From Pelagomonas calceolata (Eukaryota > Sar > Pelagophyceae > Pelagomonadales > Pelagomonadaceae), in contig CAKKNE010000005.1 of the NCBI GenBank assembly GCA_918797485.1, forward strand, positions 186,001-250,000: 64,000 nucleotides of DNA, written 5' to 3'. The notes below the pieces were generated by a model. That model searched no databases. It was given only the letters and a program-made list of their open reading frames with translations, and had not been told where the DNA came from. The translations under genes were made by a program, and so were the position numbers. Each line of letters opens with the position of its first letter. Within the stretch, counting starts at the first letter, position 1. Below, one piece after another: positions 1 to 43,616 of the stretch.

Positions 1-1066
1 AGGCCGCGGCCATCTCTATCCTAGCTTCTGCCCTTGCCGCTTTGCGCTCCAGACGCGCGCGCAGGCGCGCGACCGCCGGTAGAAACGACCGCGCCGCGGT
101 GTACATCCCAGAATTCCGATCGGCCACGTCCGCCACGATCGTCTCGGACAGCGCCAAGGCGGTCGCGGTCACGCCGACGAGCACGGCGCCGCCGGCTGCT
201 CCTCTATCTAGAGCACAAACGACCGCAACAGTTGCCGCACAGAACGCTCCCAGAGTCCGCAGCACGACCCAGTGGCCCGAGGGGAAGCGCGGCCCCGCGC
301 CCGCCGCCCGTCGTTGCGCTCGGTATTCATGCAGTCTTTCCAAGTCCGCGCGAGCGCCCAGAGGCGTCGGCGGACACCGAGCGTCAGCCAGAGCCGCGGC
401 GCAGTCCGCCAGCGGGTCGACGAAGCGCTGCTTCTCATTTGACTTCGGACGACGCCCGCGCCGCTGCGTGTCGTCTATGGACGCCTCTAGTCGTCGACAG
501 TGCGCGGCCGCCGCCGCCAATGCTCTTTGAAAGTAGACTTCCGTCTCCGGCGCATCTAAATCGTTGAGGCCGCCTTCCAATAGTTCGGCGGCGGCGAGTT
601 CCGCCCCGACCGCATGTAATTGGGTTTCTTGCCGCGTCATCGCGGCTCCTAAAGTCGACCCCAGTAGAACGGAGTATAAAACACCCAACACAGCCAAGGC
701 GGCCTGCAGCGGCTCGGAACTTACATTTAGTTCCTCCGTGAGCTTGTGGGCGTACTTCGAGATGGCGTCGGCCGTGACTAGGTATAGAGAGCCGCAAACA
801 ACGCCCAAAATGACGCACCACGCTAAAACGTTCACGACCGCACCGGCCGCCGGTTGACCGCCATCTAACTCCTCCAATTCGTTTTCAGTGCGTAATAAGG
901 CTTCGCTCCGATCGAAAAAGTCTCCATGTCGCGCGCTGTCGCTGTTCGACGCTCCGCCGAGCTTCCGTATGACGTTCGAGGCGCCGCGCATGGCCGTCAC
1001 GCCGCCTCTTGGTAAGTCCAGGGCTGCTGCGACGCCCATCATCCAGAGGTACATGCTGCGTCGCAT
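1..1066 (-). CDS. DUF4239/bestrophin-like four-helix membrane protein (3' end off window)
   Basis: A stop-free minus-strand frame runs from the ATG at 1066 to the left edge, giving at least 355 residues. The N terminus (MRRSMYLWMMGVAAALDLPR) looks like a signal or targeting leader. Two hydrophobic helices follow at about residues 77-100 and 110-138, then a long soluble, Ala/Arg-rich loop, then a second pair at about 260-305. The segment LGVLYSVLLGSTLGAAMTR followed by an acidic helix resembles the start of DUF4239 (bestrophin-like) proteins, which have this 2+2 helix layout. That family is mostly uncharacterised; some members are proposed chloroplast or envelope channels. The family call is by pattern only. 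The C terminus is missing because of the window edge, not because of a break. Confidence 0.55.
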   Translation of the reverse strand, partial: MRRSMYLWMMGVAAALDLPRGGVTAMRGASNVIRKLGGASNSDSARHGDFFDRSEALLRTENELEELDGGQPAAGAVVNVLAWCVILGVVCGSLYLVTADAISKYAHKLTEELNVSSEPLQAALAVLGVLYSVLLGSTLGAAMTRQETQLHAVGAELAAAELLEGGLNDLDAPETEVYFQRALAAAAAHCRRLEASIDDTQRRGRRPKSNEKQRFVDPLADCAAALADARCPPTPLGARADLERLHEYRAQRRAAGAGPRFPSGHWVVLRTLGAFCAATVAVVCALDRGAAGGAVLVGVTATALALSETIVADVADRNSGMYTAARSFLPAVARLRARLERKAARAEARIEMAAA

Positions 1067-16992: not shown

Positions 16993-19428
16993 ATGTCCAG
17001 CGGCAAAACGTTCAAAGCGTCGTCGACGCCGTCGCTCGCATTATTACTGAACCCCCTCGCCTGGTTCATCTGGATCCTGGATTTTGCGATCTGGGTCCTG
17101 ACCTTCGGCTGGGTGAAAACGATCAAGTTCTACCTCCAACCTTCCTATTCGGTAGAGGTCGGCCCGGCAGTAAGAAGAAACAGAGCCGCCGTCGACAAGC
17201 TCTTCACCTCACCAGTACCGGAAGGAGAAGGCGGCGGCGCCGTCTTAACGACCCCGAAACTCTTCGCCTGGGCCGCGGCCAAGTACGGCGACGAGAAGGC
17301 CATGGGCACGCGGACGTACCTAGGCGAATACAAGGAGGCCGGCTGGCGCTTCCCTAAAAAAAAATTCGGAGCGACGACGTGGATGTCCTTCCGCGAGCTC
17401 AAGACGAAGGCCGACGCGTTTGGGGCCGCATTAGTAGCTTCAAGGGCCAAGGGCGGCTGTGCTATGAAGCCCGTGCCGAAGGGTAAAAATGTGGAAGATT
17501 TGACCGGTCCTCATACTATCCTGTTATTTGAGGACACGTGCGCGGACTGGATGACGTGTGCGCTCGGAGCTTTGTCGCAGTCTCTCGTCGTGGCTACGTC
17601 CTACGCGACGCTCGGAATAGATGCGGTGGGCGAAGCTATCAAGGCCTCGAACATTACCACGGTCGTGACGAACAGGAAGAACGTGGAAAGAGTCGCGGGA
17701 CTGAAGAAACAGTGCCCTACCCTACAAACGATTATTTATACCGAATTCCACGTCGAGCCGAAAGACCAAGGGAAACCAATCACGGTGCCGAAGGGCCTCA
17801 CGGCCATTCCCCTCGAGGACTGCTTCGCCTTCGAACCGACGAAGGAAGCGGCCGAGCCGACGCCCGACCAGGTCGCCGTGATCATGTACACGTCCGGTTC
17901 TACGGGCAAGCCCAAGGGGGTGCTGCTCAAGCACGAAAGCGTTTTGGCGTCGATTGCTGGGTTGTTAGATGTCCTCGGCAAGGCGGCCACGACGGGAGAC
18001 TGCTACCTGGGGTATTTACCGCAGTCGCACATTTTGGAGTTCTGCGCGGAATTAACATGCTTGGCGCTGGGCATGCACATCGGCTACGCGGACCCTAGAA
18101 CCCTTACGAGCACGGGTGCCGTCCGCGAGCGCCCCGACGGCTCCATAAATCAAAAGCCCGAGTGGCCGTGCCCGCCCGGCGCGATCCAGGAGTTCCGCCC
18201 GACGTTCATGGCCGGCGTGCCCAAGGTCTGGGACATCCTGAAGAAGGCGCGGCGCGGCGTCCTCCAGACTTCTCGATGGCGTCGGCCGCCATCACTGTTG
18301 TCGGCCCGAACTCGGACACGACCTCCGAGCGACTTGATTTCCGCACAGGCCATGGAGGACAAGGTGGCCGAGATGTCGCCCGTCAAGAAGTTCATTTTTA
18401 ATGTTGCTTACGTCGGTCGAGCTACGGCTCTCAGACAACATAGAGACGCGCCTCTCCTGAAAGCTCTCGTGTTCAAGAAGCTCGCGAAGATGCTGGGGGG
18501 CAAGCTCAAGGCTACGATCTCGGGCGGTGGCGCTATTAGTTCCGAAGTGCAGACGTTTGCGCGCGTCGCGTTTTGTGCGCCCGCCGTGCAGGGTTATGCC
18601 CTCACGGAGACGTGCTGCTCGGCCACGGTGCAGCCCGTCGACGACGGCAACATCGACGGGGTGGCCGGCGCTCCCTTGACGTCGATTGAGATTCGTTTAG
18701 AATCTTGCGACATTACTGATAGAGACGGCAAGCCTTATAGATCGACGGACACGTCGCATCTAGGCTCCAAATGCTGCGGCCGCGGCGAGGTGCAGATGCG
18801 GGGCACGCCCGTGACCGCAGGGTACTTCAAGCAGCCCGACAAGACGGCCGAGGTGTTTACCGAGGACGGCTGGTTCCGGTCGGGAGATGTGGGGGTGTGG
18901 CGCCCCGACGGCCAGCTGCAGATCGTCGATCGGTTGAAGAACCTTATTAAGTTGAAGGGCGGCGAGTACATCGCTATTGAAAGTATGGAAAAAGAATATT
19001 CGACGTCGTCCTACGTGTCTGGCGTCAACGGGGGCTTGATGTGTTATGGGGACTCGGACATGGACCGGCCGGTCGCGTTCGTGGTCGCCGACGAGAAGAA
19101 GTGCTGCGCCTGGGCTGATAGTAATGGTGTTGAGTATGGCACCTTCGCGGACCTTTGTGCGACGCCGGAGATGAATAAAGAGGTCCTATCTTCGTTGATC
19201 AAGGCGGGCAAGTCCGGCAAGTTGGGCGCGAACGAGATCTTGGCTGGTATTTTGTTGTTGCCGGGCACGGGCGCCAAGGACAACGAAACTCCGCAGTTCG
19301 AGGATCCCTGGACCCCGGAAAACGGGGCTTTGACGGCGTCGAACAAGCTCCAGCGCCGCGTCATCAAGCAGGCCTACGGCGAGGCCACGGGCAAGTTCGA
19401 GGCGCTCAAGGCCAAGGGCATCCGCTAG
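16993..19428 (+). CDS. Long-chain acyl-CoA synthetase (AMP-forming)
   Basis: ATG 16993. It activates fatty acids to acyl-CoA via acyl-AMP. An N-terminal membrane anchor lies at residues 15-40 (LLLNPLAWFIWILDFAIWVL). The AMP-binding P-loop is YTSGSTGKPKG (about 298). GYLPQSHILE, GYALTETCCS (about 534), GWFRSGDVG (about 625) and IVDRLKNLIKLKGGEYIAIE (about 642) are the ACSL signatures. Residues encoded by 18259-18348 interrupt the conserved KVWDILKKARRG...AMEDKVAEM stretch. That segment is a 90-bp, in-frame, stop-free GT-AG intron, so the mature protein is about 781 residues. Typical of ER, peroxisome or plastid-envelope ACSLs; the location is not determined. Confidence 0.92.
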   Translation: MSSGKTFKASSTPSLALLLNPLAWFIWILDFAIWVLTFGWVKTIKFYLQPSYSVEVGPAVRRNRAAVDKLFTSPVPEGEGGGAVLTTPKLFAWAAAKYGDEKAMGTRTYLGEYKEAGWRFPKKKFGATTWMSFRELKTKADAFGAALVASRAKGGCAMKPVPKGKNVEDLTGPHTILLFEDTCADWMTCALGALSQSLVVATSYATLGIDAVGEAIKASNITTVVTNRKNVERVAGLKKQCPTLQTIIYTEFHVEPKDQGKPITVPKGLTAIPLEDCFAFEPTKEAAEPTPDQVAVIMYTSGSTGKPKGVLLKHESVLASIAGLLDVLGKAATTGDCYLGYLPQSHILEFCAELTCLALGMHIGYADPRTLTSTGAVRERPDGSINQKPEWPCPPGAIQEFRPTFMAGVPKVWDILKKARRGVLQTSRWRRPPSLLSARTRTRPPSDLISAQAMEDKVAEMSPVKKFIFNVAYVGRATALRQHRDAPLLKALVFKKLAKMLGGKLKATISGGGAISSEVQTFARVAFCAPAVQGYALTETCCSATVQPVDDGNIDGVAGAPLTSIEIRLESCDITDRDGKPYRSTDTSHLGSKCCGRGEVQMRGTPVTAGYFKQPDKTAEVFTEDGWFRSGDVGVWRPDGQLQIVDRLKNLIKLKGGEYIAIESMEKEYSTSSYVSGVNGGLMCYGDSDMDRPVAFVVADEKKCCAWADSNGVEYGTFADLCATPEMNKEVLSSLIKAGKSGKLGANEILAGILLLPGTGAKDNETPQFEDPWTPENGALTASNKLQRRVIKQAYGEATGKFEALKAKGIR
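18259..18348 (+). mobile_element. Introner-like intron in the acyl-CoA synthetase gene
   Basis: Starts GTCCTCCAG and ends GATTTCCGCACAG; 90 bp, 3n and without stops, so it hides in the open frame. It contains CGATGGCGTCGG, the reverse-oriented introner core. Its 3' end matches the DHH-CBS intron end (GATTTCCACACAG) at all but one base. No target duplication is visible. Confidence 0.65.
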
Positions 19429-31772: not shown

Positions 31773-32709
31773 ATGCGGCCCTCCGCGGCCCGCGCGACGT
31801 TGCTGGCAGTCGCCCTGAGCTACGGCTCGCAGGACGTGGCGCTGCGGCTCGTCCTGACGCTAACCGCGGCGCCGTCGCCGCCGGCCGTGGCCCTGGTCAA
31901 AGCGTTGATCCAGGCCGCCGCGTTCGCGCCGCCCTACTTTTTTTCGAGGCGCGACGGCGCCGCTCCACCCTGGTCCGTGTCGCTCGGCCTCGCGGCGGCA
32001 CTCGTGGCGTCCAACGAGTTTCTGCTCGAGGGCATCAAGCGGACGTCGGCGGCGAAGGCTGCGTTCCTGCTCCAGTTGTCCGTCGTGTTTACGCCGATCC
32101 TGGAATACCTTGTGCTGCGGCGACGGCAAGGCGCGCGCGTCTGGCTCGGAGCATTGTGTGCGTGCGTGGGCTGCGCGTTTCTGACGAGCAGTCCGGACGA
32201 CTCCTTCGTGATCGTCCAGCAGCGGACCGGCGATTTACTGGTCGTGGCCGCGGCGACGGCGTGGGCGGCGTACATCGTGCTCACGGCGGCGATCCCGCCG
32301 GACGCGGGCGCGCTCGAGGTGCAGGCCCGCAAGAACCTCGCCTGCGCCGGGTTCTACGCGCTGAGTGGAAATTAAATTTCGGGCGCCCCACGCCATCGAC
32401 GCGATGTTGTCTACACAGGTTCTACGGCATCTGCTGGGCCTCGTCCGCGTCCGTCGAGGCCTCGGGCGCCTGGACGCCGCGCGCTTTATTGGTTGTAGCC
32501 TACTGCGCCCTGGTCCCAGGAGCGCTCGCGGACGTGCTGCAACAAGGAGCCCAGGCCGCGATTCACGCGCCGGCGCGCCAATCGCCCTCTCATCGGCCGA
32601 TCTGGGCGGCGCTCCTCGCGGCGCCGGTGCTCGGCGAGGCCTCACGGCACGCGTCGGCGGCGGCGGCGCCCTGATCTTCGCGGGCGCGGCGCCGCGGCAG
32701 CTGCTCTAG
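31773..32709 (+). CDS. EamA/DMT-family transporter
   Basis: ATG 31773 (GTG upstream is unlikely). Repeated hydrophobic helices are of the drug/metabolite transporter type: SVSLGLAAALVASNEFLLEG, AAFLLQLSVVFTPILEYLVL, VWLGALCACVGCAFLTSS, and in exon 2 LLVVAYCALVPGALADVLQQ then IWAALLAAPVLGE. The EamA feature P-x-x-E (PILEYLVL) is present. A 68-bp intron (32351-32418) joins NLACAG to FYGICWAS. Near 32637 the frame shifts by one base and the last helix (GGGALIFAGA) continues to the stop at 32709. The substrate is unknown; relatives move nucleotide-sugars, triose-phosphates or amino acids. Confidence 0.82.
32351..32418 (+). mobile_element. Introner with 8-bp target-site duplication (EamA gene)
   Basis: The intron begins with GTTCTACG (32351-32358), and the same 8 bases follow the acceptor at 32419-32426. 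The first copy supplies the GT donor. The element body starts CGCTGAGTGGAAAT and ends TTGTCTACACAG. It contains CCACGCCATCGACGCGA. Splicing restores the codon GG|G and the helix AGFYGICW. This is a textbook footprint of a DNA-transposon-like introner. Confidence 0.85.
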
Positions 32710-41612: not shown

Positions 41613-41939
41613 ATGGCGGCGAGAATATTAATACTGATGGCGGCGGCTTCAGCTCTAAGTGTGACACGTCGCGTTTTGTTGCTCGCGTCTACCGGCGACC
41701 AGGCGCGGCGTTTATTAAATGACCTCGACGAGGCGTCGTCGAGGCTCGACGCGTCCCTCAATACGAAGAGTCTCCCCACGGACCTCCCCTCGCGATTCAA
41801 CGTGACGGCGGGCCCGGCCCAACGCACTGGGGTCAACCAAAGGACGGGCTACTGCTGGTACGAGCTCGCCGGCGAGTGGAGCCGTTTAGAAGGCGACCAG
41901 TGTTCGCAGCGGGACGCGAAGGGCCGACTCCAACCATAA
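41613..41939 (+). CDS. Small secreted/plastid-type precursor, unrecognised
   Basis: ATG 41613; 108 residues. A hydrophobic leader (MAARILILMAAASALSVTRR) is followed by VLLLASTGDQARRLLNDLDE and a compact C-terminal part with two Cys (GYCWYELAGEWSRLEGDQC). The leader resembles the bipartite presequences of the nearby lumenal proteins. It begins 4 nt after the preceding stop and ends 13 nt before the convergent DHH-CBS stop, so it has almost no independent promoter or terminator space. Confidence 0.5.
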   Translation: MAARILILMAAASALSVTRRVLLLASTGDQARRLLNDLDEASSRLDASLNTKSLPTDLPSRFNVTAGPAQRTGVNQRTGYCWYELAGEWSRLEGDQCSQRDAKGRLQP

Positions 41940-41952
41940 TACTTGATTGTTT

Positions 41953-43616
41953 TTACCCGGGCCCCGCCTCGCCGGACACGCCCAAAGCCGACGGCCGCGG
42001 CAGCTCGCCGCCGTAGTAGTTCCGCAGGCGCAGCAAGTCCGTCCGCGTCACGATGCCCAGCAGTCGGCCATCGTCTTCCACCACCGGAACCCGCCCGACG
42101 GTCGTGACGAGGATCTCCTCGAGCCGCGCCAGAGGCGTATCCCGGCTGACGGTCGTCACCTGCGTGCGCATGACGCCCTTCACTTTATCATTTTGCCTTC
42201 CAGCTTTTTCAGCTTTAGAAACGTCGCTCATCTTCAGGACGCCCCGCAGCCGGCCCTTCGCGTCGACCTGTGTGGAAATCACCCAATGAGTCGGGTGCAC
42301 ATCGCCACGCCATCGAGCTGGCGTCGCGTCGATGGCGTGGAGACGCGCCGCGACAATTTGATTTATGCACTGGCGTCGACGACGGCCGTCGCCTTCAGCG
42401 AGTGCGCATTTAACAATCGACGAGCGTCGGCGATGGTCGCGTCGTCCTTGAGCGTCACTACTGCGGATGTCATGATTGCGGCCGCCGTCGGCTCGGCTGG
42501 TATTTGCCCCAAGACGTACTCCCGCGCCACGTCGAGCACGTTCCGCGGCGCGCCCATGGCCTTGCGGTCGTTCTCCGGCACGGCCGCCGCCGCAGCTCTC
42601 GCGTGGCCGCCGCCTCCAAATTTGGACATCACTGTTCGGAGGTCGACCGTCGCGGCTCCCGGTCTGGCTCTTCCAATGAGGTCCAGGCCGTTCTGGTGCT
42701 CGCAGGCCATGATGAGCACGTCGGCAGCTGTGAGCTCGAGCAACTCTTCCACGACCGCGGCTAAGCCGGGCACGTAGCCTTTGCTGCGGACCGCGACCGT
42801 GGCGACGCCGACGCCGCGGTACAAACGCGACTCCACAGTTCTTAGAGCCGTCGCCAGGATCTTCCGCTGATCTCCGCTTATTCGTTCCACCCCGAACTCT
42901 GCGATGGCGGCTTGGGACGCGCCCTTGCGCAGCAGCCACGCTAAAGCGTCGGCGTCTCGCGCCGTCGTCGTCTCGTAGGCGAGGCCGCCTGTGTCCGCCC
43001 GGATGCCTAGCACGTACAACGTTGCTTCCGGTACTGATGGGGTCACGTCGGCGTCCCGGAGTCGCTCCACTATTAATGTAGTGGTGCTACCAACGGGTTC
43101 AACCACGACCTCCGTGGCATGCAGTCCCAACGACTCGGACTCCTCGCCCTCGCCCCCGACGTGGTGGTCGTAGACGTGCAGCGACTGCGCGAGACTGAGC
43201 CATCTTTTCGACCGTCCTAGGCGCGCGGCCGACGACGCGTCGACAACGCCCAATGCCTCAATATCAGACCCGTCGATGGTCTTGAAACCGCGCACGGGCA
43301 ACACATGCTTGTGGTAGGCCAGGAACCGCTGGACCACCGGCACCGCGCCGCGTGGCATGACGACGTGCGTCGGCACGAGTGAAAACTCCGGGTCCCGGCC
43401 CCATAGAGAAGCTAAGGCGCAGGCCGCGGCGAGCGAGTCGAAGTCGCAGTTTGTGGTGGTGAGGACGACGTTGCAGGGCTCGGCCGTAATCTCGGCGACA
43501 GGTTCTTGCGTCGCGGCGCGGAGTGCAGTGCTGCACTTTGGCCTTGGTGCAAGGAAACCTCCCGCCGTTTGCGTGATGGCCAGGAGCGCTGCGGCGACTC
43601 GTCGTGTTCGCGGCAT
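41953..43616 (-). CDS. DHH-family phosphoesterase with two CBS domains, plastid-type leader
   Basis: ATG 43616 (a longer frame opens at GTG). The leader MPRTRRVAAALLAITQTAGG, then FLAP, resembles a plastid presequence. DHH motifs are TTTNCDFDSLAAACALA, GVVDAS, YDHHVGG and GIRADTGGLAYETTTARD; the DHHA1 domain has KFGGGGHARAAAA. Such enzymes hydrolyse phosphodiester or phosphoanhydride bonds (nano-RNA, pAp, cyclic dinucleotides, polyphosphate). Two CBS units follow (TIADARRLLNAHSLKATAVV-DAKGRLRGVLKMSD; RVPVVEDDGRLLGIVTRTDL), which usually sense adenosine nucleotides. A 113-bp introner sits exactly inside the first CBS domain. In bacteria the DHH-CBS pair often precedes a CCA-adding polymerase; none is present here. 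Confidence 0.85.
42268..42380 (-). mobile_element. Introner with 8-bp target-site duplication and internal inverted repeat (DHH-CBS gene)
   Basis: GTCGACGC flanks the element twice (plus-strand GCGTCGAC at 42373-42380 and 42260-42267); the first copy supplies the GT donor. It ends GGTGATTTCCACACAG. Inside, CCACGCCATCGA and TCGATGGCGTGG form a perfect 12-bp inverted repeat. Splicing restores ATAVV-DAKGRLRGVL of the CBS domain. Confidence 0.88.

What the first reader, a model, noticed from the sequence alone, without database searches (positions are those of the whole stretch)
42260..42380. Second introner with 8-bp duplication and a 12-bp internal inverted repeat, inside a CBS domain
GCGTCGAC flanks the element on both sides. 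Inside lie CCACGCCATCGA and its perfect inverted partner TCGATGGCGTGG. The terminal ATTTCCACACAG is the inverted counterpart of the 5' terminal CTGAGTGGAAAT of the EamA element, which suggests shared terminal inverted repeats across the family. The insertion interrupts ATAVV-DAKGRLRGVL and is exactly corrected by splicing.
Basis: seen in the sequence. Interest (0 to 1): 0.75.

Follow-up and report, generated by a model that had tools for sequence, protein, structure and literature searches.

The report
Transposon-born intron with terminal repeats
A 105-base piece of mobile DNA landed inside an algal gene, copied 8 bases of the gene as it did so, and appears to be removed from the message as a new intron; it has many sister copies in this genome and is a new example of a known way in which genes gain introns.

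Summary
Window 42268-42372 is a 105-bp element with imperfect terminal inverted repeats (10 of 14 bases), a 12-bp internal palindrome and a perfect 8-bp target-site duplication (TSD). On the minus strand it is a 113-nt intron: the first duplicate supplies the GT donor, the element's CACAG end the acceptor. Removing it restores a DHH-DHHA1-CBS-CBS protein exactly. The assembly fits the published Pelagomonas calceolata genome (inference). The terminal motif occurs 2,050 times against 2 for a reversed control. Of 179 distinct copies paired by termini alone, 122 carry an 8-bp TSD with at most one mismatch (shuffled: 0.7%); in 121 of 122 the TSD offers a GT/GC donor on one strand or the other. Copies with an acceptor at both ends lie either way round in genes (17 of 28 sense); the window's subfamily lacks it at one end and is nearly always sense (16 of 17; p 0.017). 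The target resembles that of hAT and P transposons. Two hAT-like elements found have other termini; no cognate transposase was found. The mechanism is the one published for Aureococcus and Micromonas introners: a new member of a known kind. Splicing itself was not seen in RNA.

The parts
42260..42267 (-). Target-site duplication, copy 2 in gene sense (GTCGACGC); first 8 bases of the downstream exon
   Evidence: Read directly; in frame after joining
42268..42372 (-). 105-bp introner (non-autonomous element with terminal inverted repeats), CAG-type subfamily; sense strand is minus
   Evidence: Homologous copies in the genome, aligned; family statistics
42373..42380 (-). Target-site duplication, copy 1 in gene sense (GTCGACGC); its first two bases are the inferred GT splice donor
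   Evidence: Read directly; this donor with the CACAG acceptor restores the frame
42268..42380 (-). Inferred 113-nt spliceosomal intron, GT...AG, with in-frame stops; length not divisible by 3
   Evidence: splicing inferred, no RNA reads examined
42359..42372 (-). 5' terminal inverted repeat in sense, CAGTGCATAAATCA
   Evidence: 83 exact copies genome-wide, 0 for the reversed pattern
42268..42281 (-). 3' terminal inverted repeat in sense, TGATTTCCACACAG; ends in the AG acceptor
   Evidence: like the 3' terminal majority sequence of the family
42305..42340 (.). Internal palindrome: 12-bp arms CCACGCCATCGA / TCGATGGCGTGG around a 12-base loop; one difference from the family core used
   Evidence: as RNA the intron folds better than 200 of 200 shuffles (z -4.04), but the stem shows little compensatory change
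42381..43616 (-). Upstream exon of the host gene from the first ATG taken: DHH-like and DHHA1 regions and the start of the first CBS domain
41953..42267 (-). Downstream exon of the host gene: rest of the CBS pair, to the TAA stop
32361..32418 (+).

Best explanation
The feature is an introner: a short non-autonomous DNA transposon that became a spliceosomal intron when it inserted. Steps: (1) a transposase working in trans binds the terminal inverted repeats and inserts the element across an 8-bp staggered cut (inferred; the exact 8-bp duplications and inverted termini are shown). (2) The preferred target is a near-palindrome, roughly GYNNNNRC, so that after duplication the element is preceded by GT or GC on one strand or both (shown statistically; a target preference apart from survival is indicated by RC at the end not used for splicing in 12 of 30 one-way copies against an 18% background). 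(3) The terminal ...CACAG of the element is the 3' splice acceptor; intron = first duplicate + element, so the mRNA is restored to the base (supported by frame, homologues and domains; splicing inferred). (4) In one subfamily both ends read CTGTG.../...CACAG, so an acceptor is present whichever way the element lands; in the subfamily of the window copy one end reads CAGTG..., the acceptor in that direction is lost, and copies are found almost only in the sense direction (supported, modest numbers).
For: Perfect TSD and termini in the window. 2,050 termini versus 2 in the control. 179 distinct copies from 193 loci, ends paired without looking at the flanks: 122 with TSD at most 1 mismatch, 68 perfect, shuffled 0.7%, agreement dropping to 33% at positions 0 and 9; in the three sampling sets 29 of 42, 47 of 62 and 46 of 75. 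Donor on one strand or the other in 121 of 122, expected 33%. The longer open frame across the rejoined flanks follows the donor strand: 27 of 27 sense-only, 5 of 6 antisense-only, Fisher p 2.5e-5; with clear internal orientation only, 19 of 19 and 2 of 3. Among copies with clear internal orientation CAG-type 16 of 17 sense, CTG-type 17 of 28, Fisher p 0.017; without that filter 24 of 25 and 18 of 32. Exact joining keeps the codon phase in 27 of 34 testable copies, expected a third. Pfam domains cross the rejoined junction in L006 (URO-D), L036 (DLIC) and L182 (Kinesin). Window gene.
Against: No RNA reads were examined, so splicing of this copy is inferred. No cognate transposase was found. 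57 of 179 copies have TSDs with two or more mismatches, and 7 of 34 do not keep phase when joined exactly (decay, untranslated regions, neighbouring introns or mis-set ends; not resolved). No empty allele of this site was seen as DNA. The strand call rests on open-frame length, a rough measure in a GC-rich genome; L035 went the other way (283 against 279 residues). Only 3 of the 6 antisense-only copies have a clear internal orientation. Of five antisense flanks scanned, one gave no Pfam family and one a domain that does not cross the junction.
Confidence: 0.92

Rival explanations
1. Narrower form of the best explanation: the introner family is an hAT-superfamily miniature element, mobilised by an hAT transposase.
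For: 8-bp TSD; target composition G-T/C at 1-2 and A/G-C at 7-8, like the hobo motif GTNCGNAC and Hermes nTnnnnAn (PMC3276498, PMC10368747, passages read). CAGTG as a hAT-like end is recalled. Two hAT-like elements bounded by matching ends and perfect 8-bp TSDs lie in the same genome.
Against: Both have different termini (CAGGGCAGCAGAAGGG; CTAGGTTGCC). Their Pfam matches are weak: Dimer_Tnp_hAT 22.3 bits for L011 (cut-off 21.4) and 18.8 for L012 (below cut-off, 23.6). As queries they found only themselves or themselves and one 63-residue hit, L048, not followed. zf-BED and DUF4371 found nothing, DUF659 only L012 again.
Confidence: 0.5
2. It is a miniature element of the P-element superfamily.
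For: The P element also makes 8-bp TSDs, target GTCCGGAC (PMC3276498, passage read). PMC2820524 (passage) gives YARNG as the P-superfamily terminal consensus, which CAGTG fits and CTGTG does not.
Against: No match to the TNP-like RNase H domain in the genome, though the control genomes did not ring either, so absence is not shown.
Confidence: 0.2
3. RNA-based spread: the intron was copied by reverse splicing and reverse transcription, and the flanking repeat is coincidence.
For: Copies appear to be spliced out exactly, which reverse splicing also predicts.
Against: 8-bp duplications in 122 of 179 copies, inverted termini, and antisense copies in genes are not expected from reverse splicing.
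Confidence: 0.02
4. Chance: an ordinary old intron whose boundaries happen to look like a repeat.
For: GCGTCGAC is a common 8-mer here (24 in 64 kb).
Against: Genome-wide family with the same termini and duplications.
Confidence: 0.01

Closest known systems
Introner elements of Aureococcus anophagefferens and Micromonas pusilla (Huff, Zilberman and Roy 2016; paper not held; known here through passages of PMC9860276, PMC9481584, PMC7789003, PMC10228655 and recall of its abstract)
   Same: Short non-autonomous elements with TIRs and TSDs; one splice site carried, the other taken from the duplicated target, splicing restores the mRNA (recalled); insertion in both orientations is credited to Huff et al. 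by PMC10228655 (passage).
   Different: Another species; no sequence comparison with Aureococcus introners was possible. The one-way CAG subfamily and its orientation skew are measured here; whether Huff et al. describe the like could not be checked.
Introner-length introns of Pelagomonas calceolata (PMC9481584; passages read)
   Same: Very probably the same genome; the paper notes an intron-length peak near 210 bp as in Aureococcus introners, which fits the 200-206-bp class found here plus its 8-bp TSD (18 of 179 copies).
   Different: The passages read give no termini, TSDs or orientation; its Supplementary Note 3 was not readable here.
Symbiodinium microadriaticum introners (PMC9860276, section 7 read)
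   Same: TIRs; 3' splice site carried, 5' splice site taken from the TSD.
   Different: 4-bp TSD there, 8-bp here.
Aureococcus sp. family 4 introners (PMC9860276, Fig. 2 legend read)
   Same: 8-bp TSD in a pelagophyte.
   Different: Those carry both splice sites and add 12 bp to the transcript; the window copy adds nothing.
hAT transposons (hobo, Hermes)
   Same: 8-bp TSD and GT....AC-like target preference.
   Different: No hAT transposase with these termini found.

Membership tests
Introner | Many similar introns at unrelated sites in one genome | tested here: met
Introner | Copies lie in genes and removal restores the frame | tested here: met
   27 of 34 testable copies keep phase; window gene exact; splicing not seen in RNA
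Introner | Lineage-specific (recent) insertion | tested here: inconclusive
   Perfect TSD in the window copy; protein homologues are continuous but no relative's genomic DNA was available
DNA-transposon-type introner (Aureococcus/Micromonas type) | Terminal inverted repeats | tested here: met
DNA-transposon-type introner (Aureococcus/Micromonas type) | Target-site duplication of fixed length | tested here: met
   8 bp
DNA-transposon-type introner (Aureococcus/Micromonas type) | One splice site carried, the other co-opted from the TSD | tested here: met
   By frame and donor statistics; not by RNA
DNA-transposon-type introner (Aureococcus/Micromonas type) | Insertion into nucleosome linkers | not testable with these tools
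   No nucleosome maps
hAT superfamily | 8-bp TSD | tested here: met
hAT superfamily | Target preference nTnnnnAn | tested here: inconclusive
   T 31 and C 17 of 55 at position 2, A 29 and G 16 of 55 at position 7 in CTG-type copies; mixed with selection for splice donors
hAT superfamily | hAT transposase with the same termini | tested here: inconclusive
   Two hAT-like elements found, both with other termini; no third found, but a six-frame search can miss genes cut by introns
P superfamily | P/THAP9-type transposase | tested here: inconclusive
   No hit, control silent too

The most novel reading that the evidence does not exclude
A two-way intron-making transposon and its one-way derivative: the near-palindromic target (roughly GTNNNNAC) hands a donor to either strand, the inverted repeats hand an acceptor to either strand, and a subfamily in which one terminal repeat has no AG survives almost only in the sense direction. 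This natural experiment separates the transposase's target choice from selection on splicing. (Odds lowered from 0.6 after a recheck, in which the orientation contrast weakened from p 0.0007 to p 0.017 once copies of unclear internal orientation were left out.)
Probability: 0.55. Interest if true: 0.5.

Novelty: new member of a known kind. Interest (0 to 1): 0.38.

Why it matters
How genes acquire introns in bursts is an old question, and introners are among the most direct answers. Here a chromosome-scale assembly, probably of the ocean alga Pelagomonas calceolata, holds roughly 1,500 copies (estimate) of one family, with perfect target duplications in 68 of 179 sampled copies. The contrast between a two-way and a one-way subfamily would let target preference and selection for splicing be measured separately in one genome.

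Tried and rejected
Cognate transposase: Dimer_Tnp_hAT gave two loci; DUF659 one of these again, below its cut-off; KDZ, MULE, DUF4371, TNP-like RNase H and zf-BED gave none. For Dimer_Tnp_hAT, DUF659, KDZ, DUF4371 and TNP-like the prokaryotic control genomes were silent too, so for those not found absence is not shown. A six-frame search can lose genes cut by introns. One 63-residue hit (L048) was not followed.

The two hAT-like elements as the missing partner: rejected, other termini. Homologues of their proteins: 3 and 5 clusters, all from metagenome-type sources without names beyond 'hypothetical protein'.

Viruses as carriers: 43 viral stretches hold CTGTGTGGAAATCAA; 1 of 43 had paired termini at the loose threshold, with 6 of 8 TSD bases differing, taken as chance; two internal patterns gave 0; the host protein gave none; no match in phages.

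RNA function of the hairpin: in 93 of 179 copies with the ungapped core, changed pairs were broken 137 times, kept by a one-sided change 28 times, compensated twice; so no sign of selection on RNA structure.

Bacterial promoter/terminator scan of 41900-42600 and Rfam at gathering thresholds: nothing. The ends of the 61212/61805 termini in the window make no TSD pair at the thresholds.

Rows dropped before counts: elements without a partner end within 320 bp or within 20 bases of a locus end, and copies identical in sequence; in the CAG/CTG table 37 of 122 copies with unclear internal orientation or another 5' end, 87 loci shorter than 1,900 bases, copies with more than 2 TSD mismatches, and also CTG-type copies with donors on both strands. 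Of the 193 loci 41 were picked by likeness to the window copy, 72 by the general terminus, 78 by the CAG terminus and 2 are the hAT loci (0 elements); so CAG-type copies are over-represented and their share is not an estimate. A first pass on part of the data gave 70 of 95.

Full report
Where it is. The window is bases 186001-250000 of contig 5 of an assembly of 32,445,274 bases in 8 contigs. Size, contig number (six nuclear, one plastid, one mitochondrial) and a large near-identical end shared by contigs 1 and 5 fit the published Pelagomonas calceolata RCC100 genome (PMC9481584, passages read); the element has a 100% identical copy at C1:228362-228482, as that duplication predicts. The species name is an inference.

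The observation. The element occupies 42268-42372, flanked by GCGTCGAC on both sides. In gene sense (minus strand) it reads GTCGACGC | CAGTGCATAAATCA ... TGATTTCCACACAG | GTCGACGC. Its ends are imperfect inverted repeats of each other (10 of 14). It holds a perfect 12-bp palindrome with a 12-base loop. The 8-mer by itself is common in this window (24 against 8.75 expected), so the case rests on its register with the termini and on the family. A scan of the window for family termini plus a matching 8-mer out to 6 kb gave this element alone, and none in the reversed window.

The gene. Removing 113 nt (first duplicate plus element) joins a frame that codes for a 516-residue protein from the ATG taken; unspliced, the frame meets stops. 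Pfam finds two CBS stretches and DHHA1 over their cut-offs and DHH below its cut-off (20.6 of 28.1 bits). Eleven homologues, chosen from the 120 listed, among them ones named as Pelagophyceae sp. CCMP2097, Chrysophaeum taylorii and Aureococcus anophagefferens, run through the junction ATAVV-DAKGRLRG with at most one residue of difference in length there. A 98% identical 516-residue protein (P0001) has the spliced form; whether it comes from RNA, from DNA without the intron, or from an intron-aware prediction is not known.

The family. The terminal motif CWGTGYRKAAATCA occurs 1,042 + 1,008 times in the genome; the reversed pattern 1 + 1. In the first 618 kb of contig 1, where the capped listing looks complete on both strands, 42 termini make 31 elements, which scales to about 1,500 elements (an estimate). 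I fetched 193 loci: 41 by likeness to the window copy, 72 by the general terminus, 78 by the CAG terminus and the 2 hAT loci; ends were paired by terminal likeness only. Of 179 distinct elements 68 had a perfect 8-bp TSD and 54 more a single mismatch; shuffled pairs gave 0.7%. Agreement was 75-92% at positions 1-8 and 33% at positions 0 and 9, so the duplication is 8 bp. By sampling set the good TSDs were 29 of 42, 47 of 62 and 46 of 75 elements. Copies of 200-206 bp have perfect TSDs in 13 of 18 cases and a median pairwise identity of 0.89 (range 0.60-0.96); copies under 160 bp in 44 of 130.

How splice sites arise. 121 of the 122 good TSDs have GT/GC at the start or AC/GC at the end (either copy of the TSD gives 121); 33% would be expected from the flanks. 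Such a TSD gives a donor to one strand or the other. The element ends in CACAG. If both ends read CTGTG.../...CACAG the acceptor is there in both directions. If the 5' end reads CAGTG, as in the window, only the sense direction has one. Prediction: CAG-type copies need a donor in sense, CTG-type copies do not. Observed: sense donor in 28 of 30 CAG-type and 40 of 55 CTG-type copies (Fisher p 0.025). Independently, the longer open frame across the rejoined flanks lies on the sense strand in 16 of 17 CAG-type and 17 of 28 CTG-type copies of clear internal orientation (p 0.017); without that filter 24 of 25 and 18 of 32 (p 0.0007). The frame follows the donor strand in 27 of 27 sense-only and 5 of 6 antisense-only copies; of the six, three have a clear internal orientation, and two of these agree. 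Rejoined antisense flanks of five copies were scanned: URO-D (L006) and dynein light intermediate chain (L036) cross the exact junction; kinesin (L182) does too, but that copy's internal orientation is unclear; L031 has a domain beside the junction; L035 none. Where the codon phase could be read on both sides, exact joining kept it in 27 of 34 copies.

Target choice or survival. In CAG-type copies the far end of the TSD plays no part in splicing, yet RC stands there in 12 of 30, against a background of 18% (p 0.005). So part of the pattern looks like target preference for a near-palindrome, and part like survival of spliceable copies. The preference resembles hobo (GTNCGNAC) and the P element (GTCCGGAC) (PMC3276498, passage read) and Hermes nTnnnnAn (PMC10368747, PMC2803484, passages read).

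The missing enzyme. hAT dimerisation domains were found at two places, with weak scores. Both lie between matching ends: L011:4050-7700, with an identical 16-base inverted terminus and TSD TTGCTCGC, and L012:4022-6890, 15 of 16 bases, TSD ACACTCGG. Neither has introner termini. No other candidate was found. hAT is the likeliest superfamily, P the next; neither is shown.

What is known. Introners with TIRs and TSDs, one splice site carried and the other co-opted, are in print for Aureococcus and Micromonas (Huff et al. 2016, not held; abstract recalled, cited in PMC9481584, PMC9860276, PMC7789003, passages read). PMC10228655 credits Huff et al. with insertion in both orientations (passage). PMC9481584 notes introner-length introns in P. 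calceolata. PMC9860276 (section 7 and passages read) catalogues the ways of splice-site recruitment and compares ends in both orientations. A search for 'introner' with 'hAT superfamily' found no paper, and one for 'Pelagomonas calceolata' with 'introner' one, PMC9481584. The library lacks most subscription journals and all preprints. So this is a new, well-documented member of a known kind; the one-way subfamily is the part for which I saw no account.

Noticed in passing
L011:4050-7700 (G000:C4, about 4499549-4503199): hAT-like element, 3,651 bp, identical 16-base terminal repeat (20 bases by the repeat finder) and perfect 8-bp TSD; an introner-like stretch that may be an old intron lies just upstream of its 714-aa frame.
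   Followed up: partly
L012:4022-6890 (G000:C5, about 1220521-1223389): A second hAT-like element, 2,869 bp, perfect TSD ACACTCGG, 832-aa open frame; a 95% identical protein cluster with 206 member sequences is in the protein collection.
   Followed up: partly
L004 and L025 (G000:C6:240586 and 245743): Copies 5 kb apart share the TSD GTCACCAC and similar flanks: the insertion seems older than a local gene duplication.
   Followed up: no
G000:C1:293627-293990 and 602991-603522: Pairs of introners only about 70 and 145 bp apart, recalling the nucleosome-sized exons reported for introners.
   Followed up: no
window 164-247, minus strand: ARAGORN, run with the bacterial code, calls a tRNA-Pyl with CTA anticodon in this algal contig; probably a false call.
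   Followed up: no
P0123: A 513-aa protein from an unnamed source: 102 residues near its C-terminus are 87% identical to the L011 frame, the rest is not alike; perhaps a transposon fragment fused to another gene.
   Followed up: partly
window 18332-18348: Another family-like terminus (TTGATTTCCGCACAG) inside the frame of an AMP-binding enzyme gene, without a paired end and TSD at the thresholds.
   Followed up: partly
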